NCBI GenBank assembly: GCA_020080175.1
Contig: JAGHQL010000005.1
Coordinates: forward strand, 124,001 to 188,000
Length of the DNA: 64,000 bases
From: Glutinoglossum americanum
Lineage: Eukaryota; Ascomycota; Geoglossomycetes; Geoglossales; Geoglossaceae
Reading direction: 5' to 3'
The notes under the pieces were generated by a model. That model saw nothing but the letters and a program-made list of their open reading frames with translations, had not been told where the DNA came from and did no database searches. The position numbers were made by a program, and so were the translations under genes. Below are positions 1 through 30,500 of the stretch, in pieces. The first letter of the stretch is position 1. Every line of letters begins with the position of its first letter.

Positions 1-1150
1 ATTGCCGTCCGTTGATTCTCCACAGATCAGCGACTAAGATAGCCGACGAATAGAGCCTGTCTCTGGTGCGACCCATCCCTGCGGCACCAAGCTACACGCT
101 TCCCGCTTTTCCCACTTCTGCACTCAAGATCGCCTGCTGACTTATTTCTGCCCGAAGAATCCCAATAACAAGACCAAACGCTCACTCGTGCGAAAAGCCA
201 AGCCCGGTGCGATTCGTCATGGCTGATCTCAGCGGGCAACTCGGCCACATATTATTACCCGACGCCATCTAGCCACGAAACAAGAAGCAGACGACTAAGC
301 ATGAGGAATCAGTTGGGGCTCGCGACAGCTTTGCGGTCGCATACGAGATCTCGATCGCCTCAGCTGCACCGGGTTCTTCCACGCACCACCTGAGCTGACA
401 CATGCCGTAGCTTGCGCACCCCCCGATGCGGATGGTTGCGGGTTTGGCGCGCCGCGTGGCCCCCATCGACCGCGCGGCTACCTCCTTGTCGTGGCGGGCC
501 CTTAGAAATACACGACGGGCTGTGTGGTCGCCGCAAACCCTACAGGAATATTGCGGGTGCGTGCTCCCATCATACTCAGCTCCTCCGTTAAGCGACCCCG
601 CAGGCATTCCACGAGGTGGGTGACAGCCCTCGGCTCGATCCCGACGTCCGCCGGTGCCTTCAAACCCGGAACCACACCCCATACCGGAAAAGGGGCTGGG
701 GCTCGGCGTGTGTTATCGGTTTTAGAACCAATGCGTGCGAAGAATTTGCGCACGAAAATATTCGGGTTAATTTTTTCTAAGTTGTCTTGGGAAAAAGTAA
801 GGATTTTCTCAAATTTAATAATTTTTTTTTTTTCCTTGTTGAATACTTGGCGTTGCAGGGGGTTTCCGACTGCAGCAGCCTTGCGGTCTCAAATGGGGTT
901 TCCGACTGCAGCAGCCGTGCGGTCTTAAATGGGGTTTCCGACTGCAGCAGCCGTGCGGTCTTAAATGGGGTTTCCGACCGCAGCAGCCGTGCGGTCTTAA
1001 ATGGGGTTTGCGGTCGCAGCAGCCATGTGTTGTCAAGGGGACACCCACTAGCATGACCCCAGGCCCGTGCTGGCATAATATAGGACTATTATAAATAGTC
1101 CGGTTGCTCGAAGCTTAGCCTTAGGGATCCCCGCTCAGGTCGACATCCCC
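1..1150. other. gene-poor start of window with a minisatellite
   Basis: Overlapping short open frames occur on both strands but none resembles a known family or shows intron signals. Apart from the 36-bp tandem repeat listed separately, I see nothing I can assign here. Confidence 0.5.
859..1029. repeat. 36-bp tandem repeat (minisatellite), about 4.7 units
   Basis: Four full 36-bp units begin at 859, 895, 931 and 967, and a more diverged partial unit begins at 1003. Each starts GGGGTTTCCGAC (GGGGTTTGCGGT in the last) and carries a GCAGCAGCC core. Units 2 and 3 are identical and the outer units diverge. Because 36 is a multiple of three, open frames persist through the array on both strands; these are artefacts, not genes. 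Confidence 0.95.
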
Positions 1151-1625
1151 AAGGCTAACATTCGAGCTACTCTTATCCACCTTTGCCCTGCCAACCTCGT
1201 ATCGGAAAATGGAGCAAGAATCGTCAACAGCGGATATTCCCAACATCTCTGATACTAGGTTTGGAACACAAGCACAATTCCAACGCCGTCGAAGACTAAC
1301 CATCTGTCCTAGGGGTTGTCCTGCCAAACGCCCTGCCGAACCCCAGCCTTCAGTTAAGCCTCCGAACGTTACAATGCCGAGTACTCCTTGTCCATACCAC
1401 GGCCCAATTCTCCAGCTCACTGCCGGCTGTGGTAACCACGGACAAGGACTGGACCCTATGCAGAGGTTCCTCCACGCAGGCCCATCCGAGCAGCCTGCCC
1501 TCCTCAACCGGCCAGACACCGGAAAGCTGTCCATTTCAAAAAACTGCTCGTGCAGCGGTTCGGGACGAGCGGTCGTTTAAGACGGGGCAAGACCCAAGGC
1601 TAGGCGAAGCGGGAGCCGAGGCAAG
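1150..1625 (+). repeat. dispersed ORF-bearing repeat, copy A
   Basis: This copy of an unnamed dispersed element carries an open frame at 1209-1580 (123 aa). It starts MEQESSTAD and ends with the conserved block CPYHGPILQL, GLDPMQRFL, PSEQPALL, RPDTGKLSI, KNCSC. The same block is seen in copies near 4.6, 6.8, 16.0 and 30.3 kb. Similarity extends upstream of the ATG (a TACCTTTG-like stretch) and downstream of the stop, where 1577-1620 resembles 30465-30500, so the unit is longer than the ORF. I do not recognise the peptide. It could be a small gene family or a non-autonomous mobile element. Confidence 0.75.
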
Positions 1626-4395
1626 GCCGTGCTGGTTCGGAAGAGACTTCATATCGAGCTGCCCTCCATATAATTGGGAATATTAGGAATACTGGGGGGG
1701 GGGGGTTCGGACGACAACGGTATTATTATTTTTGAGGGCTCTCCTCGGAATTCGCATCCTGTCTGAAACCCTCCTAAACCAAGAGCGAGAATAGTGGTCG
1801 CACGGGGTTCCTTGGATACCAAAAAAACGGCGGGACTTCGGAGTTCTAGTAGAAAATTGGGCCTGTGCATGCGGGTGCGTTTCGCGTTTTTGTTTACATA
1901 AGTTATTACCTAGTATTACGAAGTATGCAGAACACACATGCCGGGGCGCTTACCGAATGATTGATGATTTACGTGTCAGCGAGATAGCCTCGTTTTTCTG
2001 CTGTTGGAGTCTCGATTTGGCGGCTTTTTATGCTGATCACCAATAGTCGGTGCACGATCATCGCCCTTCCCGTTTGTTCAGTCTAACCCCTTTGTATATA
2101 GCTCGGGATTGCGCCCTCACTTGATCCTATAATTGATCCGCACTCTACATGATTTCCAGACAATCTACCCGCAATATCAGGCTTTGTTGGGTTATGTTCT
2201 AACGGAGATTCATTCGCTAGAGTCCAGATTATGCGCTTGTATTGAACCTTGCACGGCACCTGGGAAGGCGCCTGGATATTTTACGTGCCAATCCTGCAGA
2301 AGTGGCAGGGATTCTGTCAACTGTGCGACATTATTTCATCGTAATTCCTGTGGGGAGTTGTGCGAAGAATGGCAAGTCAGAGCTACGTAGGATTTTGGCA
2401 GGATTAGTTTTTCCGGGTATTCGGATAAATAGCGCCGCTGGGCCGCGGGCAAAACTGAAACAGGAAACTTTGTCCCCGGAACCGGAGAGACTATCCTCCG
2501 AAGTGCAGGAGAGCGCGGGGTGCAATCAATCTGCCTCGCAGAGACATTCATGGGTATTTACTCCATATAGCTAAAATCGTCGTCCCTCCGCGTCAGCTAT
2601 TCCCCAGGCCTTCGATTTATGTACCTACTTTTACGTATTCTGATGTATACAAGATACCCACATTGCCGGCCATAGGCTATCGGTGCAGTATAACCCCCAC
2701 AGTTGCACTTCATCGGCAGCCCCTAACCTGCTTATATCCGCCAGGCTCGCATAGCTGGTTCGAATCACCCCGAGCTTCACCCCCCCAACCTATCGCGGCA
2801 TATCGCTCGTAAAGCATCGACCACTAGCGGCGTTGTATGAGGTAACTCCGAAGAATGCCATATTAAATCGTTTACTTGGGCCGCATGGTTCGGCGAGCAG
2901 ATAACGAACATTCTTGTGATTTGCTCAAAAGGGGATAGATACATGGGGGTGGAGGGAAGTAGCGTTAGAAACGTTGGAGGGACGGGCGAGAATGGGCGGG
3001 GCGATGACGCAATAAGGGTGCAATCGGGAGCGATTTTAGTTCCCCGGATCGGGCTTACCCCAGCACGGCGAATTCGGGTGTTTTTGCCCTACTTCCAAAA
3101 TTCACGCATTTTCCGAACCGGGAGGAAAGCCGAGTGATGGTAATAAAAAACTCGAATCCTGACTGCTCTCTGTGGGTGGTTGCCTGAGTCCAACATCGCT
3201 GATGTTAAATGGGGTGGACGAATCGCAAGTTTCGCCTCTTTAGCGGTTTCCATTGCACCGCCGGAGCGTGCATGCATCATGTCGCGAAAGTTAAATTTCT
3301 TTTTCCCCTTCCCCCCTCCTTTTTTTTCTAGGAGGGGATGGATTCACCCCCGAGGTTTCCTCAAGGATCCTTTCTTAGGGTTTGGCTTTTCGATTTGGCA
3401 CCCTCTTCTCAACATCTTGCCTGAGTTTTAACATTTTAAGACAGCAACTCCTCCCAAGGAAGACGCTTGTCATTCTGAGGCGTGAGAGGTATGCAGTTGC
3501 TTTTGTTTACCGTGGGGATTAGTTTAATACCTTACGACTTCCGGCTATAGACTGGGGCTGGTATCGCGGGTCCCGTCAGTTTTGGACGTCAAATGTGGAC
3601 TGCTGTCATCTTTTATTCAGTGCAATAAGAGCCGAGACTCGATCACAGCACAGGCTTCGGACTAAAAATCCACCCCCGCAACGCTTGGCAGCTGTGGTCC
3701 CCAGCGACAAGGATGTGATAATATAATCCTATTTAGAATTTGCAATTCGCTTAAGCCGATGTCTGCTCAGCTTGCATTCCCTCAAAAAAAGGATTTGTCC
3801 TCGAAAAACAAGTTTGCGGAGATACACCCCTGTGAGGCCGACCTACTTAGACCTAACCGGGATGGAGAAAGTGCGAACGTCAAATTGAGGGCTCCCGAAA
3901 AAAAAATAAAAGAAATATGCTTATGCAGGTTTCATTGCTTGCAGCAAGGATGCGGTCATCCGTTGGGCTACCGTGGTTCCGCCGCCTTAGCCTCCTTCTC
4001 CAAGACAGCTTACGCACGCCAGCGCACCCAGTGCGAGGCCGACAAGTCCACGACCTTAGTCTGGAGACATACGCGCATGCTGCTCCGCACTCGAGCGTGA
4101 GCGAATGTCTTACGCGCCTTGCGAAATGCTGCCTATTTATTTTGTTGCTTTCTGAAAATGGCCTTGTTAGCCTGGTCTAGAGTCGTCGGAACTGCGCGGG
4201 AAAAACGCGCCGGGTTCGCTTGCACTGGAATGGTCGGGAATTGGCCACCAGTTGGTCTTAGCTTTCCCTCGACCGCATTTTCCGATAGTCCACCTCTAGT
4301 GAATATTCGCTATTTGGTGTTCGGTAGGGTAGCTCAGTCACAGGGGTGAAAAATCCAAAAGCTCTCCCTCGAAATAACATTTATTATCGTCAGGA
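1626..4395. other. gene-free stretch
   Basis: I found no recognisable gene. There is a run of ten G at about 1688-1697. Small open frames at 2133-2574 and 3759-4180 overlap one another in several frames and have no family resemblance. Confidence 0.5.
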
Positions 4396-4399
4396 GCTT

Positions 4400-4960
4400 T
4401 CGATATTGCCAACGAGACTATGAGAATGTAGAACAAAAGCCTCGTGGAACCTAACGCCGCCTTGCCCTGACTCAGAGGCCATCTAGCAATGAAGTTTATT
4501 ATATCCTCATGCTCTGCCTAAATTGCTGCACGAGCAATTTCTAGTGATTGATAGTTCCCCGGTATCTAACCGAAGAACGAGAGCAGGTTGCTCGGATGGG
4601 TCCACAGACAGGAACCGCATCATAGGACTTAGCCCTCGTCCCAGGTTACCTGCACTGGCATTGAGTTGGAGAATTGGGGCGTGGTATGAGCAAGTGGTAT
4701 CGGGTATTGCAGCGTTCGGCGGCCTAACAGAAGGCTGGATTTCTGTTGAACGTTGGTCGGGAGGGCCCCTGAGAGAGTGATCAGCATTCTTCCGCAGAGA
4801 CCTCGTAGCTACATTTCAAAAGAAAATTGCAAGGCCTAACCTCGTAGCAGATTCCGAACCTTCACTGTTGGAAGTGCCCGTGTTCGGTGTCCGTTGCTCC
4901 ATGTTGCGATAGTAGGTGGGCAGAGTAAAGGTATATAAAAGGAGAATAAGTATATTGTTG
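4400..4960 (-). repeat. dispersed ORF-bearing repeat, copy B
   Basis: On the minus strand the unit runs from an ATG at 4912 (MEQRTPNTG) to a stop at 4508, about 405 nt. The C-terminal block reads CSYHAPILQL, GLSPMMRFL, PSEQPAL, RLDTGELSI, RNCSC. A middle segment (QPSVRPPNA) matches copy A (QPSVKPPNV). The sequence after the stop (about 4400-4475) aligns with that after copy E (about 15840-15890), showing that flanking non-coding sequence belongs to the repeat. The frame is interrupted in its first half. Confidence 0.75.
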
Positions 4961-6680
4961 TAAGTAGTGGACTTGAGTGCTGATTCCGAATCTGTTACTT
5001 CTAGCAGATGTGCCTAAGCCTTAATTATATGGCTCGGCGTTCTTAACTTAGGGACGGAGGGCATTGGGAAACGGACATATATGCTCCCGCCCACACCCTC
5101 ACAGTGCGAGAAGCTTATTCCAGCAGTCTGCATGTCTGCTTCCGCAATGCGCTGAGCCGGCTATAACTGGTGCGCTAAGCTCGCTCCGGTGGTGCTTTCG
5201 TAATGCGCCAAGCCCACCACAGGATTCGCGAGTTAGCTGCAGTAACGGCTGCAGAAGAGGAAAAAGAAAATATTCCGCGGCAAAAGCCACTCCCTGGTAG
5301 GGGCTTAGACCTTGCAACAGGCGGCCCTGCTCCCGTAGGAAGTTAGTTAGGTGTGAAATCACCCACCTAGAAGGGGCAAGACCAGATCGTCGGAATTATC
5401 GTTCGTGGTGATGAAAAAAAGCGATGCAAATGGACCCCCTTTTGCTGTCTCCACACATCTATCGTTATTTCCCTAAATTTCGCCGTTGGCCAATCTCTTC
5501 TCCTTAAGTGCAAAGGGGATCAAAAAGACTGCTGATCGCAGGTTAAGACTTCGGGGTGTCTTATCGGCTTTCGCGTGAATCATCATCCCGCAGGCGAAAG
5601 GGCGTGGTCGCTAGAGGGCCTTACCCGATTTGACACCAAAATGCAAGGGGAGAGGTGGGGCATGGCTGCCATAGCCTTCCCATAAGGATTGCGCACACAC
5701 ACGATGTATCATGAGTGGGTAGCGCTCATGGATGAGCAAGGCGAAACCCCGTTCGACAACACCGACTATCCAAAAACTATGCTCGGCTGTGGCTCCCACA
5801 TTTTGGGGCCAAATCGACTACGTCATTGAGAGGGGCTGCGCGTGCTCTTGTAGTGGAGATGCCCCCTTCCTCATATTTCGTACCAAATCATAAGGCTGCT
5901 GGTTCAACTAAGCGATTTCTTTTCTTTTCGAGAGCGGGTGGGCCTGAAAGGGAGGGGCGCCGCACTTTCCTTTTCAGGCGGTGAAGCCCCCGCCCTTCCT
6001 CTGCTAAGCGATTTTTTTTCTTTTCGAGAGCAACAGCATTTTTGGGACATTGGCGGAGCAGGAAAACGAGTGCCCTTCACACTTCCTATAGCGACCGGTC
6101 AGGTCCCATGCGCATGGGTTCAGAGTAGAAATTCGCCGGTGCGGAGTTATGCCAAGACCGTAGTTCGAGGAAAGTCTTTCTGCCTGAATGCTTGCTGGCC
6201 TGTAGAACGAACTGCCCTCGTAGGCGATGATGGGGCGATAGGCTGAGGATGGCGATCGGACCCGTCGCAACGGGCGAGAGTATACCTTACCCGGCGCCAT
6301 GGAAGCGTCCCCTGTCTGGGCTGAGCAGGTGACTTGTGCCGCCGCTCTACCGAAGCTAAGCGAGTTGCATGCCATGATGACGGTGAACAATGCAATGTAA
6401 CGTCCTCAGCCCCCTCTTTGGGACGACCGTCAATCAGATATCGGGTGGCATCCACCTTTTGCTTTCTCTAGTTTATGAGCCACACGATAAATTCGAGCCT
6501 TGGAGGCTCAGCGGGTTTTCAGAGGAGAGTTCTTTCAATGGGGAATTCAGATGTCTTTTGGCCCTCCTGGGGCGGTCGCTACTGCGCTTGGAAAACTCCC
6601 CACAAACTCTGCGTATCTAGATACAGAGACTCTTGGAAACCAGCTCCAACTTTGCCTGCCAGCGGCCATTCTACCATTCT
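4961..6680. other. gene-free stretch
   Basis: I found no recognisable gene. A segment around 5920-5940 and 6005-6028 repeats the string GCGATTTTTT/GCGATTTCTT plus CTTTTCGAGAGC, a local direct duplication of roughly 25 bp about 85 bp apart. Confidence 0.45.
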
Positions 6681-6681
6681 C

Positions 6682-7135
6682 TCAGTTGCTGCACGAGCAA
6701 TTTTTAGTGATTGACAGCTCCCCAGTGTCTGGCCGATAGCAGAGAGCAGACTGCTCAGATGGGCACAAAGAAAGGAGTCTCTCCATAGGGCTCAAGCCCT
6801 GTCCGCCATTGTCTCCGCCGACCTTAAGCTGCAGAATCGGGCCGTGATATGGGCAGGCTGGTGCGTTTACCGCTTGATTTTCATTGGTGATTGTAGTGTC
6901 GGTATCCGTATTTCGAGTACTTTCTTTCGCGGCAGTCGGTTGCTGGGCTGGACGTTGAACTTTGGGGGTAGTTCGCCTGGAGCGGCCCCTATAGAAGCTA
7001 TTAGCCCTCTCTCGCTGAGGCGTTGTAGCCAGACTGATTCAGTGAAAAAATGGCGAGGTCAGACCCAACATGCTCCGCTCCCGGCGTCCGTTGCCCCATA
7101 TTCGACGATATTGTCAGATCCAAAGGTATTAGAAC
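6682..7135 (-). repeat. dispersed ORF-bearing repeat, copy C
   Basis: This minus-strand copy runs from an ATG at 7099 (MGQRTPGAE) to a stop at 6682, about 418 nt. The end block reads CPYHGPILQL, GLSPMERLL, PSEQSAL, RPDTGELSI, KNCSC. Upstream of it a Ser/Thr/Arg-rich middle (RGRSRRTTPK, then a TDTDTT stretch) aligns with copy D. The first and second halves lie in different frames, so this copy is not intact. Its terminal block is one of the closest to the family consensus. Confidence 0.75.
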
Positions 7136-9156
7136 TAGAAATAAATAATATTGTGTTGCTTTGGGAAAATAGAATTTGAGTGGGGATTAGTAGCCGAGCC
7201 AGGCCCTTAGTTATATATATATCGCAACCTCGTCTCCGAACTGGGGGACAGAGTGTTTCGAATACGCCTTGCCGGGCTCCCGGCAGCTCGCGGCTGTGCT
7301 ATCTTTGGCGCATAGAACCGAATCAGATGTGGTGCCTGCGTCATTGAGAGGAAAAAACTGCAAAAAGGGTCTAACTAGATTTATCTTAGAGATTTCACAG
7401 GGGGCAGCTAGTTGATGAAGCCTCTGTGGGATTCGCTGTCGCCCCCGATCCAACCGGACCAAGCGAGCACTCATGTAGAACCGGGGGGACATTCTTAGCG
7501 CCCAGGCGCGACCGCGTTGAGGATTCAGTGATTGCACAGCTCTCCACGTTCCAGGCAGGCACAGAGATGACGGATGCCTTATCCGCCCGAAGAGAGTTCG
7601 ACCCCGGAATACGGTTTGACCTGGCGACCTGACGGAGATCCCGCCTGCCTAAGTAGGATAAAGTGGTGCTCTAGCTACAATATCACTCAGCACAAATTGC
7701 ACAATCCTCAAATTAACGAATAGTAGACGCGAGTGATGCCAGGTGAGCTCCAATTTTAACGCGTTAGGGATCAGGTATGGTTTACAATAAGAGAGATGCA
7801 GCATTCCCCTCCAACTTTCCGCAATATCTCAACTCCCGCGGGATTATTAGTTACGAGCAAGAGAGACCCTTCCAGATCAGACTGGAGTTTGTCTTATCGC
7901 AGAAATTAACTGAAAGGCTATTATTGAGGTAACGAGACGGTACGTTAGATAGAATTCTCTGGCTATGCTATTCAGTAGCTACGAGATGGGTGACGAGATC
8001 TCCCGACTCGCACGTAGCGGAGTTTTGAGAAATAGGTAACCGCTCAGCCTTTGCGAAAAGAGGAAGTCCCGCTCCCGTCTAGAAGCTTTACCATACGGAA
8101 TTACCGATAGACAACAAGGTATTACCCTCTTAGCTCTTGCAGAGCGTTAGCGGCCTAGGGGTAAGGCTGCGTGTTGCAGCATACGCGGTGAAGTGACAAG
8201 CATTGAGGCCTAGTCACTCAAACGAGCGTACTTTAACGAGTTCGGAGGGGGATCCTGCAGATGAATGCGATATTAGATAGGCAGCCAGAGTGAGCGGACG
8301 ATGCGGATATCCTCTGCGTCCGGCCGGGCTCCACGTTATCGTCCTACGACCCAATGCTCCGAAAGTTTAAAGGCTGAGACACCAAAACTACTAGGCTATG
8401 AGAATCAACCCCCGCATAGCCACCAAAGACCCACCTGCGCGTTGCCACGCAGAGACTTACCCAGACACCCCAAGTACACCGCATCCCCATACAAACTTTT
8501 CGTGATATAGCCAAAACCAAATGATTCGCTCGAGCCACGATGAAACGAAATTAAAATTCCTAGGCTGTGTTAGCCAAGCTACGCATGCGGCAAGGTGCAG
8601 AATTTGGACATCGAATCGCGCCTGCTCATTCGGTTTCGCCAAGCTATCCGTACAAGCTGACATCCAGCACGCTATTGGTGCGTTGGATTCTTCGCATACG
8701 ACAGCCTCATCGGCACCGCCGAACACCCACCGCTGAACATTACACGACTGCCTTGCCCCACAAAAAATTTCCCGGGAAAACTAGCGTCGAAAACGAGGTG
8801 ACAAGGCCTTCTCTCCCAGAAAATAATTCTCCACCTTATCCACCCCCTTCCTGTTCACCAAAACCGTCCAGACGTAGTGGAGCCTACCGACATTTCTGGC
8901 TCCATGCTTGAATACTCACAAAATTCCCCACCGGGTCCCGGCAAAAAGCTGACTCGAGCAAAGGCGACAAAAACTAAACCTGCTAAGCAGAGGATTTACG
9001 CAGTGCAAAGTTTTAGTGGAAATTCGGCCTGCTGCCTGGGGGCCTTACTCCCGGGTTGAGAATGGCAGCATTATAACTCCCATTCAATAGAACCACCAGA
9101 CCACTCATGCGCTGGCCGGCGGGCCCATCTCATAAATGACAATCCTCACCAACGTA
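7136..9156. other. gene-free stretch
   Basis: I found no recognisable gene, RNA or element. Short open frames at 7211-7632 and 8301-8911 lie on both strands with no family match and no splice pattern. Confidence 0.5.
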
Positions 9157-9280
9157 GGTTCTTATCAGCATGGGACCTCACAAAGGCTGGTATTCGTCGG
9201 TACGGAACCTCATCGGCAAGGGGTCTCATCTGCACAGGTCAGGTCTTCGTCGATGCAGGGCCTCATTAATGCGGGCAAGA
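9157..9280. repeat. degenerate 16-bp tandem repeat
   Basis: Successive blocks of about 16 bp follow the loose pattern GGnCCTCATCnGCAnG. Examples are GGTTCTTATCAGCATG at 9157, GGACCTCACAAAGGCT at 9173, GAACCTCATCGGCAAG near 9205 and GGCCTCATTAATGCGG near 9260. Spacing is regular except for a short insertion before the last two units. This is an old, decayed minisatellite. Confidence 0.6.
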
Positions 9281-10320: not shown

Positions 10321-10344
10321 ACTATTGACTAGATTTTGGAGGAT

Positions 10345-10765
10345 TGGACCATGGTATGGGCAAGTGGGCGGCTGTGTCGTGATGAAAAAGGTCACGTTCG
10401 AATATTCATACAGTATGTAGTTGGTGGAATATATTAGACGTTGATTTATACCGGGGCGAACCCCAAGGATCACTATAGGCTAACGCGGCCGCCAAGACGA
10501 AGATAGGGGTAAATGACCAGGGATAGTATTGCAGCTCGGCACAGCATAGCAACTTCAACATATCGAATCGGTTACTTAGTCACCAGCAGTGCTTGTTAGC
10601 TCCGCGGAGCTCGATTTCCGAGTTGAGGGAGGGCGAGTATTAGCGAAAGCTACGTTATAATTACCCTAAAGTAGCTGTTAGCCCTCTCCCATAGGTCTTT
10701 TCTATAGAGGAACTGCGAGATTAGGCCAAACAGAACCCGCTTTTGGTGTCCTTTGCTCCACGCTC
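10345..10765 (-). repeat. dispersed ORF-bearing repeat, degraded copy F
   Basis: A minus-strand start region at about 10761 reads VEQRTPKAG, matching the MEQRTPKAG-type start of the other copies. The CPYHGPILQ motif lies at about 10362-10336. The two motifs are about 400 nt apart instead of about 220, so extra sequence lies between them. The conserved end of the block is lost. Confidence 0.6.
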
Positions 10766-11114
10766 TCATATAAGATTGCTAGAACGAAATTCAATTACAA
10801 TAGGGTGCCGGGTAAACTCTTTTACCCCTAAAACGGTCTCACAACAGTCAAAAAAAAAAAATAGAAAGAACGAATCTACAGTTGAAAGGAGTAGATTCAC
10901 AGATTTTACTTCACATCGCAAAGGCAGACACAGGCGAATAATGCCTAAGGATACAAATTCGATTTTACTCGGTATCGCATACAATCTACGTAGACAGGAC
11001 TCTAGAATGCAAGAAAAGAAACCCCTACATGTAGAAAACATCATAAACATGATTCCGGCGCCCGACCAGCGGGAAATGGCTTGTAGTTAGTTAATAAATA
11101 TGAAAGATGTTTCC
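10766..11114. other. downstream region of the LPMO gene at 11.1-12.3 kb
   Basis: AT-rich sequence with a run of 12 A (about 10851). It probably holds the 3' UTR and terminator of the minus-strand LPMO gene. No separate gene is supported. Confidence 0.4.
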
Positions 11115-12287: not shown

Positions 12288-12471
12288 GTTTGTGTTTTGA
12301 CCGAAGCTGGAGTGCTGAGGAGTGTGCTTAGATAGTAAAGAATTGTAAGAGTGTGTTGTGTTGTGCGAGTGTATTGGAAGATGTAGGAAGCTGCTGTAGA
12401 ACGGTTGGATTAGCGGTTGAGGTTCTCTTTAAATATTGAGAGTCTGCAGGTGTGGGCGGAGAGAGCGGATC

Positions 12472-12560
12472 GGGTGTGCAGGAGGTGAATTGGTGTACGG
12501 AAACAGTGAGTGGGTTGGGTGTGCAGAAAGTGACTTGTGTGCGGAAAGAGTGAGTGGATT
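12472..12560. repeat. two imperfect 45-bp tandem units upstream of the LPMO gene
   Basis: Units at 12472-12516 and 12517-12560 both start GGGTGTGCAG and share GTGAATTG/GTGACTTG, CGGAAA and AGTGAGTGG. A third, weaker unit may precede them at about 12443. They lie 185-275 bp upstream of the minus-strand LPMO start codon, so they sit in its likely promoter. A TTTAAATA element lies at about 12428-12436. A regulatory role is only an inference. Confidence 0.6.
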
Positions 12561-15834: not shown

Positions 15835-16145
15835 TTGTCAGAATCCCTTCGCGTTGCTCACAAGACTATGAGTCGGTAGATGTAGAATCCCTTGTATCCC
15901 ATCCCAATCTGGTACCGTCCTCCAGCGAACCATATTTCTCTAGCACCCACCCTCAGTTGCCGCATGAACAGTTCTTGGTGGTCGACAGCTTTCCGATGTC
16001 CGATCGAAGGAGGAGAGTAGGCTGCTCTGATGGATCAATAGATAGGAACCTCTCCATAGGGTTCTGTCCACGCCCGGAATTACCACCGCCGACCGTAAGT
16101 TGGAGAATCGGATTGTGGTATGGACAGGTGGGTGGCTTCGTTGAA
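15835..16145 (-). repeat. dispersed ORF-bearing repeat, copy E, 3' half
   Basis: The minus strand encodes CPYHNPILQL, RGQNPMERFL, PSEQPTLL, RSDIGKLS, KNCSCGN and then stops at 15953. About 100-120 nt after the stop align with the sequence after copy B. The 5' half of the same copy lies at 16640-16800, separated by about 430 bp of unrelated sequence. Confidence 0.7.
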
Positions 16146-16600
16146 CTGGTTTCCTGGCCTTCTTTGGCATTTGTGTTTTCTCTATCTACAGCTACGCGTC
16201 ACAAGTCTGAGCCATTTACGCGAAATCGCGCAAAAAGCGCGTAGAATTCCCATCCTCACCCATACTTCTACATCCCAAATTACCCCCTCAACGCATCCTC
16301 CTTGGACCTGTTTCTGAGAATTGTATGGTTATTAGCATGGGGTTTTAAGGTACCAAACTATGTGAAGTAAAAGGTCACGATTGGTTGCTCTTGTGGAGAT
16401 CTAAATACCCTCATATTTACCAAACATTGCAATGAATGTTCTAGAGAATAAGGACTAGGTGAGCAAACTAAAATAGGTATTTTATAGAAGTAAGATACAT
16501 TAAAAACAGTAGCTTCAACTGATTTGAACCAGTACAGTTGTGGGTTGACTGGCAGCTCTTGTAAGGTGGTGATAAAAATGTTTCTCGGCTCAGACTTGTG
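16146..16600. other. sequence inserted within repeat copy E
   Basis: This interval of about 430 bp separates the two halves of copy E. I see no coding motif in it and could not define terminal repeats by eye. It is an insertion or a rearrangement junction. Confidence 0.4.
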
Positions 16601-16800
16601 GGCTAGTACTGTAGATCCCCAGTACTTGACTGCCCAGCCGAGGAGCGAGATTTGGCAAAAACTTCGTCGGAGTGGCCCCTAGAGAAGTGATTAGTCCTCT
16701 CTCGCGGAAGTGTCGCACCTTTTCCCATAGAGAACCTGCGAGTTCATACCTAGCAATGCCTATTTTCTGGATGTTTTGCCCCATCTTTCGATACAAAGTT
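16601..16800 (-). repeat. dispersed ORF-bearing repeat, copy E, 5' half
   Basis: The minus strand starts at an ATG at 16784 (MGQNIQKIG) and continues open to about 16590. The block GAGAGAGGACTAAT plus CTAGGGGCCACTCC at about 16695-16670 matches the corresponding part of copies B and C. Together with 15835-16145 it makes one copy interrupted by an insertion. Confidence 0.65.
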
Positions 16801-17695: not shown

Positions 17696-17741
17696 TGCAT
17701 GTGATTTTAGGGTGAGTCTGCATGTGATTTTAGGGTGAGTT
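17696..17741. repeat. 23-bp direct tandem duplication
   Basis: TGCATGTGATTTTAGGGTGA occurs twice in immediate succession (17696-17718 and 17719-17741), identical except for the last base of each unit. This indicates a recent slippage or repair event. Confidence 0.85.
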
Positions 17742-19600: not shown

Positions 19601-19633
19601 AACAAATAAATAAATAAATAAGCAAATAAATAG
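19601..19633. repeat. AAAT tetranucleotide microsatellite
   Basis: Repeated AAATA units interrupted once by a GC-containing unit (AAGCAAAT). Confidence 0.8.
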
Positions 19634-20979: not shown

Positions 20980-22214
20980 CTAAAAGAGGTGGGTTTGGAG
21001 AAAACTAAAGAGGCTAAATGCTAGCGATAATCCTAGGGACTGCTCGAAGGCGAAAGTGTTACACGTTAGCGGGTATTTAACCGCAGGGTTATTTTGTGCG
21101 AACTACTCACCCGTCTCCATGCTTGCTGCACGTCCAACGGCGCTGCGCCTCCACTTGAGGTAGGCTTAGCCGGGGAGGAAGTCGCAGCCGTGAGCGTTGG
21201 GGAAAATGGCGTCGCCGTCGCCGTCACCTGCGCAATTCCAGTGCAATTTCCGGTAACGGTTGAGGCCGGGTAGCCTGTTGCTGTCTGCGTTCCCGTCGCC
21301 GTGGTGGCATCTTTCCCTGGAGTGGGGAATACCACTTCGGTTCCGTCTTTGCCCTTGCAGGTATTGATCTTCTCCACGTTTGCCACGAAGAGAGGTGGAT
21401 AGTCGGTCGGGTTTAGGTTGTGATTTGTGTTGCTGCCGTTTGAGATGTTGACCCAGGCACAGTTCATGTGCATTGCAGTTACTCCTGAGATCGGAAACCA
21501 GCTCCTAGGGAGGATGTTAGCTATTCTGAGCGACTCCTCCGATATTCAACCCTGATATTTTGATCGCAGCGTAATACCAAGTCCAATGGGGCGCGAAAGG
21601 GCGGGCTGAACTCACCAGGCAAATATGGCGTGGCCGTTCGGTGTGTCATCGGGAATTTTAAAATAAAACTTTTGTGGAGATATATCTCTAGGCGGCAAGT
21701 AGTTCTCATTCCATGTCGCGTTTCCCGGACATCCACCGACCCAGCTCCGGATGACCTGGAAATTGTTTCCGCCGTCGAAGGACAAGGATACTTGGCAGCT
21801 CCCACCACCATGGGCGGCGACGTTCCCGCTTTCCGTGAAGCTATCTCTCGTCAGCGCAGCTTTCCCAAAGGCAAGTAGATAGACGCCTGCCTACTTGAAA
21901 AACGTGCTCTGCCCAGCAGCCCACTCCGTCACCCCGGCGCTGTCTGTCCCGAATCTTGGGCTCATACCGTTTAGGAATTTGCATGGAAAGTCTGTGCCAT
22001 TTGGTGCCAGAGGATGATTGAAGATAGACCTCGCGTTATCCAGAGCATAGCCAGTCAATACCAAGTCGCCAGGTAGAGTGCTCGAGCCGTTCCGAGCTTC
22101 AGGAAACCTAGTCCCGTTCGTCGCCATGCCGATACATGGCGGATAGTCGATCGAGGCGTGGGCGAGGACTTGCCGGATGAGAAACGAACATGTTAAGCTT
22201 ATGATCAACAGCAT
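20980..22214 (-). CDS. AA11-like LPMO with probable GPI anchor, four exons
   Basis: Exons on the minus strand are 22214-21895, 21840-21616, 21504-21111 and 21039-20980, giving 332 aa. Introns are GT-AG and two have clear branch sites (CTGAC in the 54-nt first intron, GCTAAC in the second). A signal peptide ends LA|H, giving mature His19 (HASIDYPP), and the second brace histidine lies in [24 protein letters not shown] and MHMNCAW match the equivalent segments of the LPMO at 11-12 kb. After the catalytic core come a Ser/Thr-rich stretch and, from exon 4, the hydrophobic end [19 protein letters not shown], which looks like a GPI-attachment signal. The protein is therefore probably held at the plasma membrane or wall. 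It is transcribed divergently from the gene at 22753. Substrate is unknown; exon 4 rests on splice signals only. Confidence 0.82.
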
Positions 22215-22752
22215 TTTTGTGTTTGATGGATAGCTGGATCGTCGAATACAGGATTCGGCAAGGCCCCAGGCTTCTTAAGGGAAGCCAAAAAGTCTGAGGC
22301 TGTAAATGATTTTCGCGAACCCAACACCGCCCCCAAATTCAACTTATTCGTAATTGGACCCCACGTTAAACTTGCAGCCCCGCCCAAACGCAAACCGCGC
22401 TGATAGGCCACTATCTCCAGCTGGCATCGGGGGTGGAGCCGTCTTGCAGTAGGCCTCCCAACCCCTGTGAATGATCCCGCGGACATTGGGCACGAAGTCG
22501 TGCGGGGAGGTGTTCATAAGCTTTGTCATACCCAATACATATACCACCCGCCTCAATTTATTTTGGCGTTAGCTGAACTGCGCTGTCTGCGCGTATGTAA
22601 AGTACGTTATTGCCTAAGCCTTGCCCGCCTTGCGCGATCGCTATTCCCCCGTCTGGATTCTCTCGGTCGGGAGGCCACCCACCAACCTGAATGTTTTTCG
22701 TCCGACAACATCGGAATTTTTTCTTAGTCCTTGGAATTTCTGGAGAGCGGTG
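22215..22752. promoter_or_regulatory. divergent intergenic region between LPMO and membrane-protein genes
   Basis: About 540 bp separate the start codons of the minus-strand LPMO gene (22214) and the plus-strand membrane-protein gene (22753). Both promoters must lie here. CAATACATATACC at about 22533 is AT-rich, but I cannot define specific factor sites. Confidence 0.5.
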
Positions 22753-24374
22753 ATGCGAATACGGTGCGAAATGGCGAGAAGTTCTCGCATCGGTCGGATG
22801 TTTTGGGCCGCTGGGGTCCTTATCGCAGTCGCTCAGGATGCGAGTGCGATGGTTCTCACCGCGCCGCCAGCGGAGCCCTCGCTCCTAGGCTACATGGGCC
22901 TGCTGAAGGACAAACGGCTTGAGAAGAGGGACTCGGCGGACTATTGCGCTGGAACTGGTTCTGGCAAAGCATGTCGGTTTTCCCTCCATAAATCTCTCCA
23001 CGATCGGAATAAAATGTCATGCGGACTGGAGTACTGATGGAATCTTTTCGATCCTCTAGGGAACTGCGCTCCGGGAACTTGTTACAGTGCTGTGGATGGG
23101 TGGATAGGTTGCTGTGATCCGTAAGTTCTACCGCACTTTTCACCTAGAGATCCTTTGTGGGACACGTCAGCCTAACATTATTTATCTATCTCAGAACGGA
23201 GGTCAAAAGCTGTGCGGTTCGCACAACATGTATACCCTACACCCCAGGAGTGACTCCTTCCTGCCACCCGGATAAGGACGGCTGCCTGCCCTGCAACTCC
23301 GACAGGCCCAACTGCGTATACCAGACGAACATAAAGATGAATCAATACATATTCTACTGCGACAGCGTTGCTCCGCAAACCATCACCCTCAGCTTTGACA
23401 ACCCCAAGACTGGGGTATTAGTGACCCCATCTGGCTGGTCTTCGGGACCCCCAAAACCCTCTCATCCGCCTTCAGCATCATCACCCTCTTTAACATCCGG
23501 CAGTCCCAACCCTCCTTCTCAAATATCGACATCCTCTCACACGGCAACGCCCTCCCCCATCCCAGTCACCAAAACCCTCTCATCCGGTATCATAGCGGCC
23601 ATATCCCTTGCTGCTGTCGCCATCATAGCCGTCCTATCAGCCACCTTATTCTGGTTCTGCATCCGGCCTTGGTTAAAAAGGCGAAAAGGACAACCTGCCC
23701 AGCAAATCACCCATATCATCGTACAGGAGAATAACAACTTCCCTTGGGGTCCCGATTCCATCGCCGCAAAAGCGCCAAGCCGCCATTCCATACCCTACCC
23801 AGAAAGCCGCTCCGAATTACCGGCACACTCACCTCACGAATTTAGCGATGATAAGAGGCCCCTGGACATCGGGAGCGACGAGGAGTCCAACATGGACACC
23901 ATCGGTGAAACCCATAGCCGAGGACCCAGAGATAGCGACATTTCACCTCTGTCTCCATACCTAGAACCCTCCTCGACCCACTCCATGATTTCTGGGCCCC
24001 CGTCCCCACCCATGGACCGCGGTGGAGCAGTCTCCCCAGTCTCCCTCCCGGGCGCTGACTCAGCACGAAGACCCACAGTATTCAGCTTCCTAACTCCGGG
24101 AAACGCCACGGCCCGCCAACTCGACGTAGACGACGACGACGACGATGACGACGACGGCGAAGATGACGGGGGCCAACTCGGTGGGCATCTAGAACTTGAG
24201 GGAAGCCCGAGATTTCACACGAGAGGTTCTATGAGGAGGAAGCGGGATTCAAACCCCAAGGAACTGGATTCCAAACGGAATTCTACGCCTAAGGAATCGG
24301 ATTCTAAGCGCGCTTCCGGGCTTCAGGAACAGCCTCCGACGCATAGAGAGGAGGACGAGGAGGCGGAGAGATAG
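22753..24374 (+). CDS. Cys-rich extracellular, single-pass membrane protein (uncharacterised fungal family)
   Basis: Exon 1 starts at 22753 (a second ATG is at 22771) with a signal peptide rich in Ala/Val, followed by SADYCAGTGSG and ACRFSLHK. Exon 2 (about 23060-23120) encodes NCAPGTCYSAVDGWIGCC. A 74-nt intron (23121-23194, GTAAGT...CAG) leads to exon 3 with CAVRTTCIPY. This spaced Cys pattern, ending in a GWIGCC plus TTC motif, is one I know from uncharacterised fungal surface proteins. A Ser/Pro/Thr-rich stalk, one transmembrane helix (about 23590-23660) with a following RRKGQ stop-transfer, and a cytosolic tail with a run of Asp (24127-24156) follow. The exon 1-2 junction is uncertain: both exons are in one frame but a TGA at 23036 must be spliced out, most simply with an intron at 22958-23059. 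A surface sensor or adhesin role is only an inference. Confidence 0.75.
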
Positions 24375-26323
24375 GATGCATAACTACTACTTTAAACCCC
24401 AACTCTCGACTACCCAAGTTCCACAGCACCTCCCCGGCGGATCCCGGGGTGGTTAGCGGAACAAAAAGGTAGCGGAGGACGATATACCGCCCGCCCCACC
24501 AGCCACCCGACCAAAACACCCCGACCTGTCCAGCCACCCACCACCACGGCATTCTCTTTTACCCCCATTAGCCAGCAACCACCTGTAACTAGCACGATCC
24601 CCTCAATCCTGTAAATATAATGACCGCTCCACCATACATACATACATACATACAAACAATCCCGGGCGACAAGCCCCAGACCCGCCGCGCTAACCAGGCT
24701 TGGCATGTGATTCGCGCGTGTGTGTGTGCGCGCATGTGCGGCGTCCAAAAATGGAGCGGTTGTGGGTGCGGAGGACGGCGTTGTGGGGGAGGGCTTTTTG
24801 GGGATGCGGCGGTGAGGGGTTGTGCGGGAGGCGACGGATGGGGAATGTGGTGGTGGTTGAGGTGGATTGGCTGCGGGGGGGCAAATAGGGATGGCTGGGG
24901 TGGAGATGCAGGGGAGGAGGTGATGAGATACCCGATTTGGGGGGTTGGATCGTCGGGTTCTGGTGTGGTGGGATGGCTGGGGGTTTGTTTGGCGGGCGGG
25001 TTTATTTTTGGGTTGGCTCGGACAAGGACCCGAGCGTGGCACGTCCGTCTATATTTATCCCGTCAAACCCGTTTTCCCTTCGTTGTGTTTGCGTGTTGGG
25101 TCCGGCCCGCATTGCACCATGCAGCTAGCGATCCAACGAACGGTCGCGTGTTGCATGTTCCTGCGAGTACACGTCTTCGTCACATTCCTGGACATCCCGC
25201 TGATCTCAGTCCGCCACCAAGGCTTAAACGTCCTTTTAGGCAGTATAGGGGCGGCTAGATCGTCATCTAATTTTAGTGAGGCTTTAGAGGGCTTTTTTGA
25301 GGGTTTGAGGGTGGTGGGTGGATGGGGCGTTACATAAGCGATACCGGTCGCGGGATTAAAGCAGCCACTACCGAGGTGCTACGAGGGTACTTCTGGGGTT
25401 TCCCCGCGCATCGTGCGGCGGTTCGGCGTCGGGGTCGAAGAACTTTGGGTGGGGAGGAGAGGGATGTGCGCTGGATTAAGGGAGTAGAGTGATTTTAGCT
25501 GTTGTTCTTAGGGGTTTTTTGGGTGCTGGAGTTGTGCTAGCGTGAGGGCAGTTATTTTCCCTCGAGCTTCGCTTTACGCCCTTGGTGCTTTGCCGGGCTG
25601 TTTTTGGAAGTTGAGGCATTTTTGTTGTGGGGCGATCCGTGACGGAAGCGTCGGAGCCCCCCGGCCTATCGCGACACTAAATCTACTATCTCAACGTATT
25701 TACCTTTGTGATTTCTTACTTTAGAGTATACCCAATCTGACTTGCTTTCATCACGGTTGTGCCGATTTATTCGGATACTTAACTGCGGCGGTAAGCCTAG
25801 CCATTGTATCGATGGCAAGAACAATTAGGCAAAAACCACCCCGCCCGCCCCAAATTACAGTCAGCATCTGCCACAACAGAATACATCGTAGTAGGTGAGC
25901 GGTGTGTGGGCCGCCACCAAATTATTCCGCGCAAGCCGCACTTTAGTCCGTAATGGCATATCAGGACAAGGCTAACCGTCGGGGATTCAGTTCTTAGCCA
26001 CAAGGGGGTGGAAGTTACACGTGTTTTCCGTTGCTTATTTCGGCTGTAGGCTTAGGTTTTAAGGCACAAATAAACGAACGCTTGCAAAAGTAATTTTGGA
26101 TAGCCTGCCAGCTTGGGTCGATGTTTAAGAAAATAAACATATTTTTATTTCTTTTAAAACTTGACTAATCATCCAAAGCCGATCGTGTTCTCACTCTCCT
26201 ACCCGTGTCCTCGGTGCTCCACTTCATAAATTTGCTTATCCAACCTGGAGATAATTAGCGAAAGGTGTCTAGTTATATAAGAGTGTACCATGTCCCTCTG
26301 CCGTTAGGCGTCAGGCGGGCTTA
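24375..26323. other. gene-free stretch
   Basis: GC-rich strand-biased sequence at 24400-25000 gives long Pro/Gly-rich frames on both strands (24410-25042 minus, 24620-25258 plus), which I regard as composition artefacts. A CATA microsatellite lies at about 24636-24655. The stretch 26080-26160 is AT-rich and may be the 3' end of the neighbouring gene. Confidence 0.5.
24636..24656. repeat. CATA microsatellite
   Basis: Five consecutive CATA units. Confidence 0.85.
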
Positions 26324-28959
26324 TTATTGTATTCGAGGGGGGACTCCAATGAATGTCGTACGACTCCAACCGTCGAGGTTCGAAAAGTAATACGCGGCAG
26401 CATCCTCACGAAGTGGCAGGCTATACCACTCGCCAAATCGGCCGCAAGAGCAGTATGGGTTCATCATCCCCTCCTCTACCATTGGGATAGAAACGCCAGT
26501 TCCGGCTTCCATACATTCCAGTAGGTCAGCCATGTCAATGTTCTCAGAAATCCAGGGGTCCTCACTGCCAATACGCCTGTATGCTAGCAACTCAGTCTGA
26601 ATGGCGGCCCAAATATGGCCCAGGTACATGTTTTCTCCAAATTCACATTCACCATTTTCTCGTTTGATAAAACAAGTACTCCCATAGCTGCTATTAGCAT
26701 CTGGACCCTTAGAAACTCCATCGGTTGAGTCTTCCCGTACCTGCTCATCATGGGCGATGCGGAGAACGTGGCAAAATACCTGCCACCCGGTTTTAGCCTT
26801 GCTGGGCCATTTATCGGTGAAGACCGTGGGAACAATTCTCACGAGTTCAACCGGGGTGAGTTCCTCGTGATCGCAATAATCGGCCTGCTCTGTACCAAGA
26901 AGGGACGCCACTGAAATATGGGCCTTAAGCCGAGAATTGGCCCCCCCGTGAAAGAGACAGAACAAACAAGCAACCATTCCGAAGAGATCTTCGTCTTCGC
27001 ATCCGAATTCTGCGAGATAGATCGCGGTCAACACCAATGTGTGTAATGGGAGGAGCTGCAGCTTCTGCCCACAATGCGAACAATGCTTCAAGAATAATCC
27101 ACTTGGGGCATCCCAGCTAGAATGGCTATCGATTGTGTCAATACAATGGCAAACCGTTTGAGCGGAAGTATGGCAAAACTTGTGCTTCCATTCAAACGGT
27201 ATAGACAATCTTCCGCTCTCCAGGAGTTCGCGATAACAGTCTGAGTCGGCATCCCACCGTCCGCAGATATCGACCTCCTCCCCAACGAAACGGTTTTCTT
27301 TCTTCAAAGCATCGTCGACAATTCCGGGCAGAATTGATGTGTGTCCTTTCAAAATGGCTATCATAAGGTTGTCGAAGACAGTGTGGCCAAGGCTATTCAC
27401 ATAAAGCTCTCTCAGTCCGGACGCGGGCTGGTCTTCCGACTCAATTGATTGGATGCGATGATAAAGGAGATCCAGGATATTGCAACATGACCTCGGACCA
27501 TGGAGATAGCTGGTTGCGAGGTGATATGGATAGAGGCTCGATACATCTACCTTAGAGTCTATTATCTTGGAAATTAAGTTTTCAACGAGGTCGAAATTGC
27601 CTGTCATGATAGCGAAACCCAGGGATTCTTCAAGGAATTCGTTTGGGGATCTCTCCGCAGCCTTTGCTACTTGTGGAACCGCTAGCGGTAGCTCATCCGC
27701 TTTGATGTTACTAAAGTCATTGCTCTCAAGACCATTTCTGAGTCTCTCCTCAAACGATAGCGTTCCCCAGGACTCAGGCCATTCTGCCCAAGCTCCTTCC
27801 TCCTGTGGATCTGGATGTCCCTGCTCTTGCGGTGGAGACAGAACCGGCTCGTAATCCACTTCCTCTACGTGAATACTCCAGTGACATAGAGATGATGGCT
27901 TCTGGGAGAGACTTGCTCTGCTCTGGTGGCCCGCTGCAGCATCTGGAGAGTTTGCTATCATGCCTAGTGTGTTTGGAGATGGAATAGATATGGGCTCTTG
28001 GTGTCTGCTGAAACCGAGGTTGTCGGCAGTCCAATCTCGGGGACCTCGGCCCCAGTATTTAGCAGTTCTGAAAGAAAATAGCCAAAACTGGTATAGCCAT
28101 GTAGACATTACTCTTTGGGACTTTCAGCGACTTCCAGAAACTCGGCAGAGGATAACTCCTACCTTCTCTCTGTCTTATCCATAGACCTGATGAGATCATC
28201 ATGTTTGCCCTGAACGAACAGGCGAGCCCTGTCAACGGCCGTCTTTCTTCTCAGCGCTGTGGAAAGCGGGGAAGGCGCATTGTAGGGAGGTGAAGCAGCA
28301 TTCGCTGGCGGAGTTGACACAGAAACATCACTTATTGCGCCTGGTGTGGAGACGAACTGTCCGAGAGGGGAAGGGTGGTCTGTATCCTTAGACCGTGACG
28401 AGCCCAAGGCCCCGTGGGGCATATTCCAGTTGAGAAAACTAGTTGAAATAATTAGCGGACTAAGTCATTCCCTAGATGCTATGGGAGTAGGGTGTTCTAC
28501 ATCCTGTTGCCAAAAGGGAGGGCTGGATCAAATAAACCACCTGGGCGGCTTCCGGTTCCACCCGCACCCAAGGCAACCACCTTCCTTGCAGCTTCTTTGG
28601 CATGCCGTCGGATCTTCTTGGGGTCGACTTCCCCAGCGCCGCTCTCGCCTGGCCATGCTCGCATATTATCGCTTTTTTTGAGGCCGAAATATTCTTTTTC
28701 CATCCCCACTTCCTATTGACCTTGTATTTATATTGGGTTTCGCTAGCCGGCAAATAAAGTTAGCATTTATTCATCTACATGAAGTGGCAGAAGACGCCCA
28801 CTTTGCATCGAACCCGTACTGTTCCTTCATTATTTCAATAACTTCAGAGAGCTTTCGATCCTCGTCCAAGTAAAGCCGCTTGATTTCGGGCTTCAAGAGC
28901 GCCCATCTTTCATTGAATGGGACAACAGGGCGAGAAGCTTGTGGAGCCGAAAACTCCAT
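26324..28959 (-). pseudogene. Clr5-domain protein gene with one apparent frame change
   Basis: Exon 1 (28959-28802) encodes MEFSAPQ followed by WALLKPEIKRLYLDEDRKL and EIMKEQYGFDA, the first half of a Clr5 domain. A 59-nt intron (28801-28743, with GCTAAC branch site) joins it to QYKYKVNRKWGWKKNIS and ICEHGQARAALGKS, the second half. VDPKKIRRHAKEAARK follows in another frame at about 28625-28640 without a plausible intron, so a small indel or deletion is likely. Two further introns (about 28498-28430 and 28162-28113) lead to a Ser/Pro-rich linker (STPGAISDVSVSTPP) and a large last exon. That exon begins STWLYQFWLFSFRTAKYWG and continues with ankyrin-like helices (LGFAIMTGNFDLVENLI). Clr5 is a fungus-specific N-terminal domain thought to bind DNA. 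The product would be about 820 aa. Except for the one shift all parts are present, so recent inactivation or a sequencing error are both possible. Confidence 0.72.
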
Positions 28960-29982
28960 GGCGGCAACCCAAGATCCCGCAAAGGGACAGAGACTTGCAA
29001 CTTGACGAGAGCCCTTCAGTCGGACAGAAAAAGGTGTAGAGACAAAGTGTTATTTGGGAAGAGAGAAGTGCGTTTGCAGCGTTGGCTGGCCTGGAGCGGA
29101 GGGGGGAATTGATGTAGAAATAGAAGTGCGAGCGGGGTTAATAGCGCAACTCAGCCGCAATCGACTGGGCAAACAGCCGCCAAGATGTGCAAAGGGAGAC
29201 TCTCCAATCCAATCTCTAAGCAGGGGTCTTGGGTGGGGCGAGGTCAAGGCGACGGCAGCCTTCTTGGCTCGGCCTTTGTGTTATGTAAAGTGAGGCGATG
29301 CCGCGTATGATCTCACAACGAAGGAACGAATGAAAAGCCAACCCCTTGCAAATGCCAAGACTTACAAAGGTAGAAAACCCAATTGCGTCCTCTGCCCGGG
29401 GGCTGTAAGCCACTCTCACGGGAACAGCTAAAATGCTTATCAGCCGTTTTTCCTAATTCGGTCGCGTTGCCAAGGCGAACAAAGGTAGACTGGCTAATAC
29501 AAGAAGCCCAGATGTATGTACAGCAACAAAACCTTCCCAGGCGACAGCGGTTTCGGACCATGACATAGCGCTTGAGCCAACTCACCAACCCTGGCTACCA
29601 AGCAGAACAAAAGGGTACCACCCAATTATACCGAGGAATTAATGACGGATCTGCTGGATTTTCTTCAAAAAGTGGATCGCTGTATGGCGCCGACCCAACC
29701 GGCGGCCGGCAGCCCTTCTATACCTAATAATGTCGCTGTTTGCCTGTCAGCTATGGTTGCTGCAAAATATCCCTCCTGCGCAAAATTAGTGGTGGTCAGG
29801 AGTTTCCCTCGCACTCGAAGCATACCCCACCTCTCGATCTGGACATTCCCGGACTATATAACTATAGCCCGGGTCCAGCTCCTTACCCCAACAGCTCCCT
29901 GGCCTCCTCTCGAGTCCTCTCCCCCAGAGTAGTACAAATTACATCCATTCTAGATTCCTTTATTCTAACCTCGTTTTATCTC
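28960..29982. other. region upstream of the Clr5 gene
   Basis: It contains the promoter of the minus-strand Clr5 gene. I see no other gene or RNA. Confidence 0.45.
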
Positions 29983-30500
29983 ATGGATCCACGAATGTCG
30001 AAAGCGAGCATTGCAAATGATGAGCGGGGCTCATCCGCTGCTAGGTCTGGTCCCACCATTTCTTCGTAGAATAGAACCATATTATCTGTGCAGAAAAGGA
30101 CTTACCGTTTTTCCAGTCGCCATTTCAGCCAGAACTACTCTCAATCCCAGCCTTCATTTGTTGATGTGTCTTCGGCGGGACACCCAAGCGCGTCGACGTC
30201 TAGTACTCTGGGTACAGACACCACACATGCCAACAACGGTCGGGTAGCTAGCTCAGCGGAACCTCCAGCCTGTCCATACCACAGCCCAAACCTTCAACTT
30301 CTAGCCAATAGTGGCTATCCCGGACGAGGACTCGCCCCTATGGACAGATTCTTATCGGAAGGCCCATCTGAGCAGTCCGCTCTCTTCCGTCGGCCAGACA
30401 CTGGAGGGCTGTCGATCTCCAAAAAGTGTCCATGCAACAAGTGGGGGTAGATTATATAGTTAGGTTAAGACGAGGGTCATAGCTAGGCTTAGTCGGAAAG
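29983..30500 (+). repeat. dispersed ORF-bearing repeat, copy D
   Basis: The region from the ATG at 29983 aligns at nucleotide level with the starts of copies B, C and F (shared CGAAAGCG). A long open frame at 30088-30450 carries the family middle (Ser/Thr-rich, TDTTHANNG) and the end block CPYHSPNLQL, GLAPMDRFL, PSEQSAL, RPDTGGLSI, KKCPC. About 35-50 nt after the stop match the region downstream of copy A (TTAAGACG...GGCTAGGC). This is the longest uninterrupted frame of the family in the window, although its first part lies in another frame. Confidence 0.75.

What the first reader, a model, noticed from the sequence alone, without database searches (positions are those of the whole stretch)
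1150..30500. Six-copy dispersed repeat carrying a conserved small Cys/His peptide of unknown kind
Copies at 1.2, 4.7, 6.9, 10.6, 16.0/16.7 and 30.1 kb, on both strands, share a start (MEQRTPKAG-like). Five of the six share an end block (CPYHxPILQL, GLxPMxRFL, PSEQxAL, RPDTGxLSI, KNCSC); copy F keeps only the CPYH motif. Differences between copies keep the amino acids of the end block more than the bases, which suggests past selection on a protein. Flanking non-coding sequence is shared as well (copy A with D after the stop, B with E). I do not know this family. The C-x2-H plus C-x-C pattern could bind metal. It could be a novel mobile element, a passenger peptide in one, or an expanded small-gene family.
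Basis: partly seen in the sequence, partly recalled or inferred. Interest (0 to 1): 0.78.

Follow-up and report, generated by a model that had tools for sequence, protein, structure and literature searches.

The report
Clustered fungal Cys/His mini-gene family
A fungus carries a local cluster of old, diverged copies of a small two-exon gene whose protein ends in a conserved cysteine/histidine module that matches no family searched here; it looks like an ordinary, though apparently undescribed, locally expanded gene family and not a mobile element.

Summary
The copies are real, far above chance, and one more lies just left of the window. They are not dispersed genome-wide: in the 25.8 Mb genome the searches found six copies with the full end block and one truncated copy within 31 kb of one contig, plus one unlinked paralogue. 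The copies share a short first exon (MEQRTP-like), an inferred phase-2 intron, a variable Pro/Ser/Thr-rich linker and a ~57-residue C-terminal module, CPYH...PMxRFL...P[ST]EQxA...CxC. Thirteen residues are invariant in 7 of 7 modules, among them the four possible metal ligands. The module is under purifying selection as a group (omega 0.31). Singly, copies B and C show it clearly and A marginally; Z, E and F do not reach significance. The 10.6 kb copy is a broken remnant and E is probably interrupted. Pfam, NCBIfam and the PDB gave no significant match, and structure prediction was uninformative (pLDDT 54.0 and 50.8). Best reading: a locally duplicated family of small proteins, probably not secreted, with a possibly zinc-binding C-terminal module. 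Role unknown; metal site inferred.

The parts
1209..1258 (+). copy A, inferred exon 1 (MEQESSTADIPNISDT + 2 nt)
   Evidence: ATG and phase-2 donor
1259..1312 (+). copy A, inferred intron (54 nt; GTTTGG...CTAAC...CCTAG); the frame is also open if it is retained
   Evidence: one other donor choice scores equal
1313..1580 (+). copy A, exon 2: linker and C-terminal module (module 1383-1577, stop TAA 1578-1580)
4841..4902 (-). copy B, inferred exon 1
4769..4840 (-). copy B, inferred intron (72 nt, GTTAGG...CTGAT...CTCAG; holds one stop if retained)
4507..4768 (-). copy B, exon 2 (module 4510-4698; CSYH variant keeps C and H)
   Evidence: omega of this copy 0.13
7065..7099 (-). copy C, inferred exon 1 (MGQRTPGAEHV + 2 nt)
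6989..7064 (-). copy C, inferred intron (76 nt); three other splice choices score equal
6682..6988 (-). copy C, exon 2 (module 6685-6861)
   Evidence: omega of this copy 0.21
10321..10785 (-). copy D, broken remnant: GTG in place of ATG, no donor GT at the shared site, stops, only the CPYHGPILQ motif of the module
16750..16784 (-). copy E, inferred exon 1
16679..16749 (-). copy E, inferred intron (71 nt, GTATGA...CTAAT...CTAG)
16135..16678 (-). copy E, about 540 nt between intron 1 and the module, with stops; holds a piece of a dispersed repeat (16186-16256)
15953..16132 (-). copy E, C-terminal module and stop
29983..30044 (+). copy F, inferred exon 1 (MDPRMSKASIANDERGSSAA + 2 nt)
30045..30116 (+). 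copy F, intron by homology (72 nt; only CTTAC as branch point); other splice choices score higher
30117..30450 (+). copy F, exon 2: long linker and module (30265-30447), stop TAG
   Evidence: closest of the cluster to the C282 paralogue, 45%

Best explanation
A protein-coding gene family that grew by local duplication, with inversions, in one 31 kb stretch of a filamentous ascomycete chromosome, with one unlinked paralogue on contig C282. Shown here: the copies, the cluster, the coding-level constraint on the group and the invariant residues. Inferred from sequence: each intact gene makes a small protein (103-131 aa in Z, A, B, C and F after removal of one phase-2 intron) with a flexible polar tail followed by a ~57-residue module. 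Mechanism, inferred (about 0.35 likely): the invariant C-x2-H and C-x-C bind one zinc ion and hold the two ends of the module together, which presents the conserved middle (PMxRFL, P[ST]EQxA) as a binding face, and the proteins act as small intracellular adaptors or regulators. The tail and linker differ between copies and would set what each does. D is a remnant and E is probably interrupted.
For: Cluster plus one paralogue only, by four protein queries and one pattern scan of the whole genome. Branch point CTRAY starting 16-19 nt before the intron end in 6 of 7 cluster copies, D among them, F not. The C282 gene has the same anatomy with GTATGT...CTAAC...CAG, read by eye. Upstream of CPYH the module's frame has no ATG back to the last stop in 5 of 6 full copies, so an upstream exon is needed. 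Omega 0.31 over the tree of six modules; 2dlnL 48.2 against omega 1; terminal branches 0.30, 2dlnL 33.6. Frame control: 0.32 in frame, 1.67 and 1.99 in the other two forward frames. 13 invariant residues in 7 of 7 modules including C3, H6, C55, C57; D is not among the seven.
Against: Donor sites in the cluster are weak (GTTAGA, GTTTGG, GTTAGG, GTCTGA, GTCTGG; E has GTATGA; D has none) and I chose them by homology and frame; for A and C other choices score equal and for F higher. Copy by copy, omega 1 is clearly rejected only for B and C, marginally for A (2dlnL 4.06), and not for Z (3.52), E (3.06) and F (0.82; omega 0.64). One antisense frame gives omega 0.35 with 2dlnL 39.6; it has 5 stops and is probably an echo of aligned third positions, which I did not test further. 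Both structure predictions are uninformative (pLDDT 54.0 and 50.8, pTM 0.16). No expression data and no relative in another species.
Confidence: 0.72

Rival explanations
1. Mostly a graveyard: one or two copies (B, C) and the C282 gene work, and the others are relics that were under selection until not long ago.
For: D is broken and E carries an insertion. Donor sites are weak. Z, E and F do not individually reject omega 1.
Against: 0 stops and no frame-breaking indel inside six modules; a conservative neutral simulation (13-21 changes per copy, 60% transitions) gives 2.9 stops on average and none in 4.6% of 5000 runs. Terminal branches as a group reject omega 1.
Confidence: 0.2
2. Small secreted, disulphide-bonded proteins (effector-like), clustered as effector genes often are.
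For: Small size, cysteines, fast-changing tails, local cluster.
Against: No hydrophobic N-terminal segment by eye; the spliced N-terminal parts of five copies hold 9-17% FILMVWYC. The invariant set is C, H, C, C, not an even number of cysteines. No signal-peptide program was available.
Confidence: 0.05
3. A mobile element or a passenger peptide in one.
For: Both strands, several copies, some shared flanks.
Against: No match in 25.8 Mb outside the cluster except one diverged paralogue; no shared ends; none of 37 DUF3435 matches lies on C263 or C282.
Confidence: 0.03

Closest known systems
Lineage-restricted, locally duplicated small gene families of filamentous fungi (general kind, from own knowledge)
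   Same: Local cluster on both strands, diverged copies, some decayed, variable tails, an unlinked paralogue
   Different: Carries a conserved Cys/His module with no significant Pfam or NCBIfam match. Whether it is lineage-restricted is untested: no fungal collection was at hand.
Small zinc modules such as LITAF or SWIM (recalled; not compared by a call of their own)
   Same: Four conserved Cys/His in two pairs
   Different: Order and spacing C-x2-H-x(42-48)-C-x-C; no Pfam model matched any of seven modules at E up to 10. As recalled, LITAF has CxxC pairs and SWIM has CxC before CxH.

Membership tests
Protein-coding gene family by local duplication | Several homologous copies, linked | tested here: met
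   Seven copies in 31 kb of C263, counting the remnant D
Protein-coding gene family by local duplication | Constraint on the protein | tested here: met
   Omega 0.31, 2dlnL 48.2; frame control; not significant for Z, E, F singly
Protein-coding gene family by local duplication | Common exon-intron structure | tested here: met
   Phase-2 intron after a short first exon in 7 of 8 loci, D lacking the donor; donors weak and chosen by homology in the cluster
Protein-coding gene family by local duplication | Expression | not testable with these tools
   No transcript data
Mobile element | Dispersed copies in the genome | tested here: not met
   Only the cluster and one paralogue
Mobile element | Common ends or terminal repeats | tested here: not met
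   Flank similarity is patchy and pair-specific within 120 nt before the start and 150 nt after the stop; no longer shared stretches
Starship cargo | DUF3435 captain on the same contig (defining role recalled) | tested here: not met
   37 matches in the genome, none on C263 or C282; contigs are incomplete
Known zinc module (any Pfam family) | Match to the family model | tested here: not met
   0 families at E up to 10 for 7 modules
Zinc-binding module (functional class) | Invariant set of four Cys/His | tested here: met
   C3, H6, C55, C57 in 7 of 7 modules
Zinc-binding module (functional class) | Ligands come together in the fold | tested here: inconclusive
   Models of pLDDT 54.0 and 50.8
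Secreted small cysteine-rich protein | N-terminal signal peptide | tested here: inconclusive
   Polar N-terminal parts by composition in five copies; no predictor run

The most novel reading that the evidence does not exclude
The cluster is a diversifying set of small metal-binding adaptors with one fixed module and variable tails, kept side by side in an accessory region that also holds NOD-like receptor genes, and used in recognition or signalling with those receptors: a protein kind not described before.
Probability: 0.06. Interest if true: 0.7.

Novelty: new member of a known kind. Interest (0 to 1): 0.36.

Why it matters
It offers a conserved Cys/His module with a clear signature (CPYH...PMxRFL...P[ST]EQxA...CxC), unmatched in the libraries searched here, that can be looked for in fungal genomes. 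Old duplicates kept in one place, at least some of them under selection, invite the question of what the small proteins do. On present evidence it is an orphan gene family, not a new kind of system.

Tried and rejected
Mobile element: searched the genome with A, the C282 exon, E and F as proteins, with A, D and the E insert as DNA, and with a CPYH pattern; rejected. The DNA searches with A and D found only themselves although related copies lie nearby, so they carry no weight.

Bacterial or viral relatives: none confirmed (34 pattern matches in viral contigs; 13 in genome contigs). No fungal collection was available, so spread among fungi is untested.

RNA gene: no Rfam match at the gathering threshold in the window. 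Known domain: no significant match. The C282 exon hits TraO at E 0.6, one module hits a EutH model at E 0.091, and the best PDB hits are a short CxC stretch of LysM receptors at E 0.15; all taken as chance.

Repeat-induced point mutation: changes against the majority base of the six modules are 84 transitions to 22 transversions, with C>T before A in 4 of 27 and G>A after T in 3 of 26. The TpA/ApT index of the seven copies is 0.73-1.02 against 0.85 for the 84 kb. No clear signature; the transition excess is unexplained.

Rooted tree: F falls next to C282 (ultrafast bootstrap 80 on DNA, 46 on protein) but the C282 branch is very long; not relied on. FastTree of the six modules is near a star.

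Fold search was not run because both models are below useful confidence. Papers: 'CPYH' as a whole word gives one unrelated chemistry paper, with 'fungal' none; one wider search gave none; another found 13, of which I saw the listing and abstract openings of 10. No paper was opened. That the module is undescribed rests on these searches and only.

Full report
What was checked. The finding names six copies of a repeat with a small Cys/His peptide. Self-comparison of the window and of 20 kb to its left finds them at 1.2, 4.7, 6.9, 10.6, 16.0-16.8 and 30.0-30.4 kb, plus a seventh (Z) at C263:123507-123880, just outside the window. DNA identity over the longest match of each pair of the six full copies is 64-74%. 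A tblastn of the copy A module gives 79.0-89.4 bits for the five other full modules against a best of 24.6 in 30 block shuffles. The 10.6 kb copy (D), not the 30.1 kb copy, is the one with only the CPYH motif.

Not dispersed. The window lies at G000:C263:124001-188000 of a 25.8 Mb, 317-contig genome. Whole-genome protein searches with copy A, the C282 exon, copy E and copy F each return the same seven places: six in C263:123.6-154.5 kb and one on C282. A CPYH-like DNA pattern returns 7 places, all in the cluster and D among them, and none for the control pattern; it does not fit the C282 sequence. The tool states that counts of large families are lower bounds. The organism is a filamentous ascomycete by inference: its mitochondrial uL4 scores 270.9 bits with the chain of 6ywe and 125.4 with the next, mitochondrial uL4 of 3j6b (that these are Neurospora and baker's yeast is recalled).

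Anatomy. Cluster copies begin with ATGG[AG]GCAA (GTG in D; ATGGATCCA in F), then a possible donor, then CTRAY starting 16-19 nt before the end of the intron (6 of 7 copies; F has CTTAC), then AG. First exons are 35, 50 or 62 nt, all phase 2. I chose donors by homology and by frame, so the phase agreement is partly built in; for A and C other splice choices score equal and for F higher. Removing the intron opens the frame from ATG to the module in Z, A, B, C and F, giving 103-131 residues; D and E gave no open one-intron model. In E a ~540 nt stretch with stops follows; it contains a 71 nt piece with 82-91% matches on three other contigs. Read by eye (L011:8240-8841), the C282 locus has a 38 nt first exon, a 77 nt intron GTATGT...GCTAAC...CTCAG, also phase 2, and a 174-residue protein with VPYEQQN-like repeats followed by the same kind of module. 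The same intron class in an unlinked paralogue, 33-45% identical in the module, is good evidence that these are genes.

The module. Over seven members (the six full cluster copies and C282; D left out) 13 positions are invariant: C3 Y5 H6 L12 M26 R28 L30 P34 E36 Q37 S50 C55 C57 in copy A numbering. The spacing C-x2-H-x(42-48)-C-x-C was counted by me on the alignment.

Flanks. Outside start and stop the similarity is patchy: no shuffle of 300 reached the score for 5' A-B, B-C, C-E and 3' B-C, B-E, Z-C; 1 to 6 of 300 did for six further comparisons; the rest of 36 are at or near chance. This fits gene duplication with old, decaying flanks and not an element with defined ends. The genome has 37 DUF3435 matches (the captain domain of Starships, recalled), none on C263 or C282.

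Surroundings. The window also holds an NPHP3_N ORF with ankyrins (44.3-46.6 kb; NACHT and NB-ARC models match it below their cut-offs), an NB-ARC ORF (59.8-61.2 kb), a TPR array (34.2-36.1 kb, of which the ORF 34212-34727 was scanned), a Clr5 domain (28.8-29.0 kb) and an ALO-type oxidase (47.5-49.5 kb), and an ORF at 11.1-12.3 kb that matches AA9 below its cut-off. This looks like an accessory neighbourhood; a link to the family is conjecture.

What it may do. No significant hit in Pfam, NCBIfam (best E 0.091) or the PDB (best E 0.15). Two AlphaFold2 runs on seven sequences gave pLDDT 54.0 and 50.8, so I have no fold. The commitment I make is a small zinc-pinned module on a flexible tail, acting by binding a partner. 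Shown: the conserved residues and the group-level constraint. Inferred: the metal, the fold, the place in the cell and the partner.

Verdict. A real, apparently undescribed, locally expanded small-gene family with an orphan Cys/His module. It is moderately interesting as an orphan domain and ordinary as a genomic phenomenon.

Noticed in passing
window 859-1038: Tandem array of a 36 nt unit (GGGGTTTCCGACTGCAGCAGCCGTGCGGTCTTAAAT-like); 72 nt steps are 97, 96 and 81% identical to the first.
   Followed up: no
window 34285-36130: TPR_12/TPR_10 array with 126 nt units; one ORF ends at an in-frame TAG inside a unit (35320), so it looks decayed.
   Followed up: partly
window 31667-31821: Inverted 63% match to part of the TPR array at 35.2-35.4 kb, perhaps a detached fragment.
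   Followed up: no
window 44333-46630 and 59810-61162: NOD-like receptor type ORFs: NPHP3_N with ankyrins, and NB-ARC with DUF7708 and DUF7779.
   Followed up: partly
window 16186-16256: Piece of a dispersed repeat inside copy E, 82-91% to places on contigs C29, C305 and C32.
   Followed up: partly
L011 8480-8600 (C282): The unlinked paralogue carries a run of QNVPYEQ-like heptads, a recent-looking tandem expansion in the tail.
   Followed up: no
whole genome G000: 37 DUF3435 matches, 29 of them with at least one stop read through, none on C263 or C282.
   Followed up: no
six modules of the cluster: Strong excess of transitions (84 to 22 against the majority base; kappa about 5) without a CpA context, unexplained.
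   Followed up: partly
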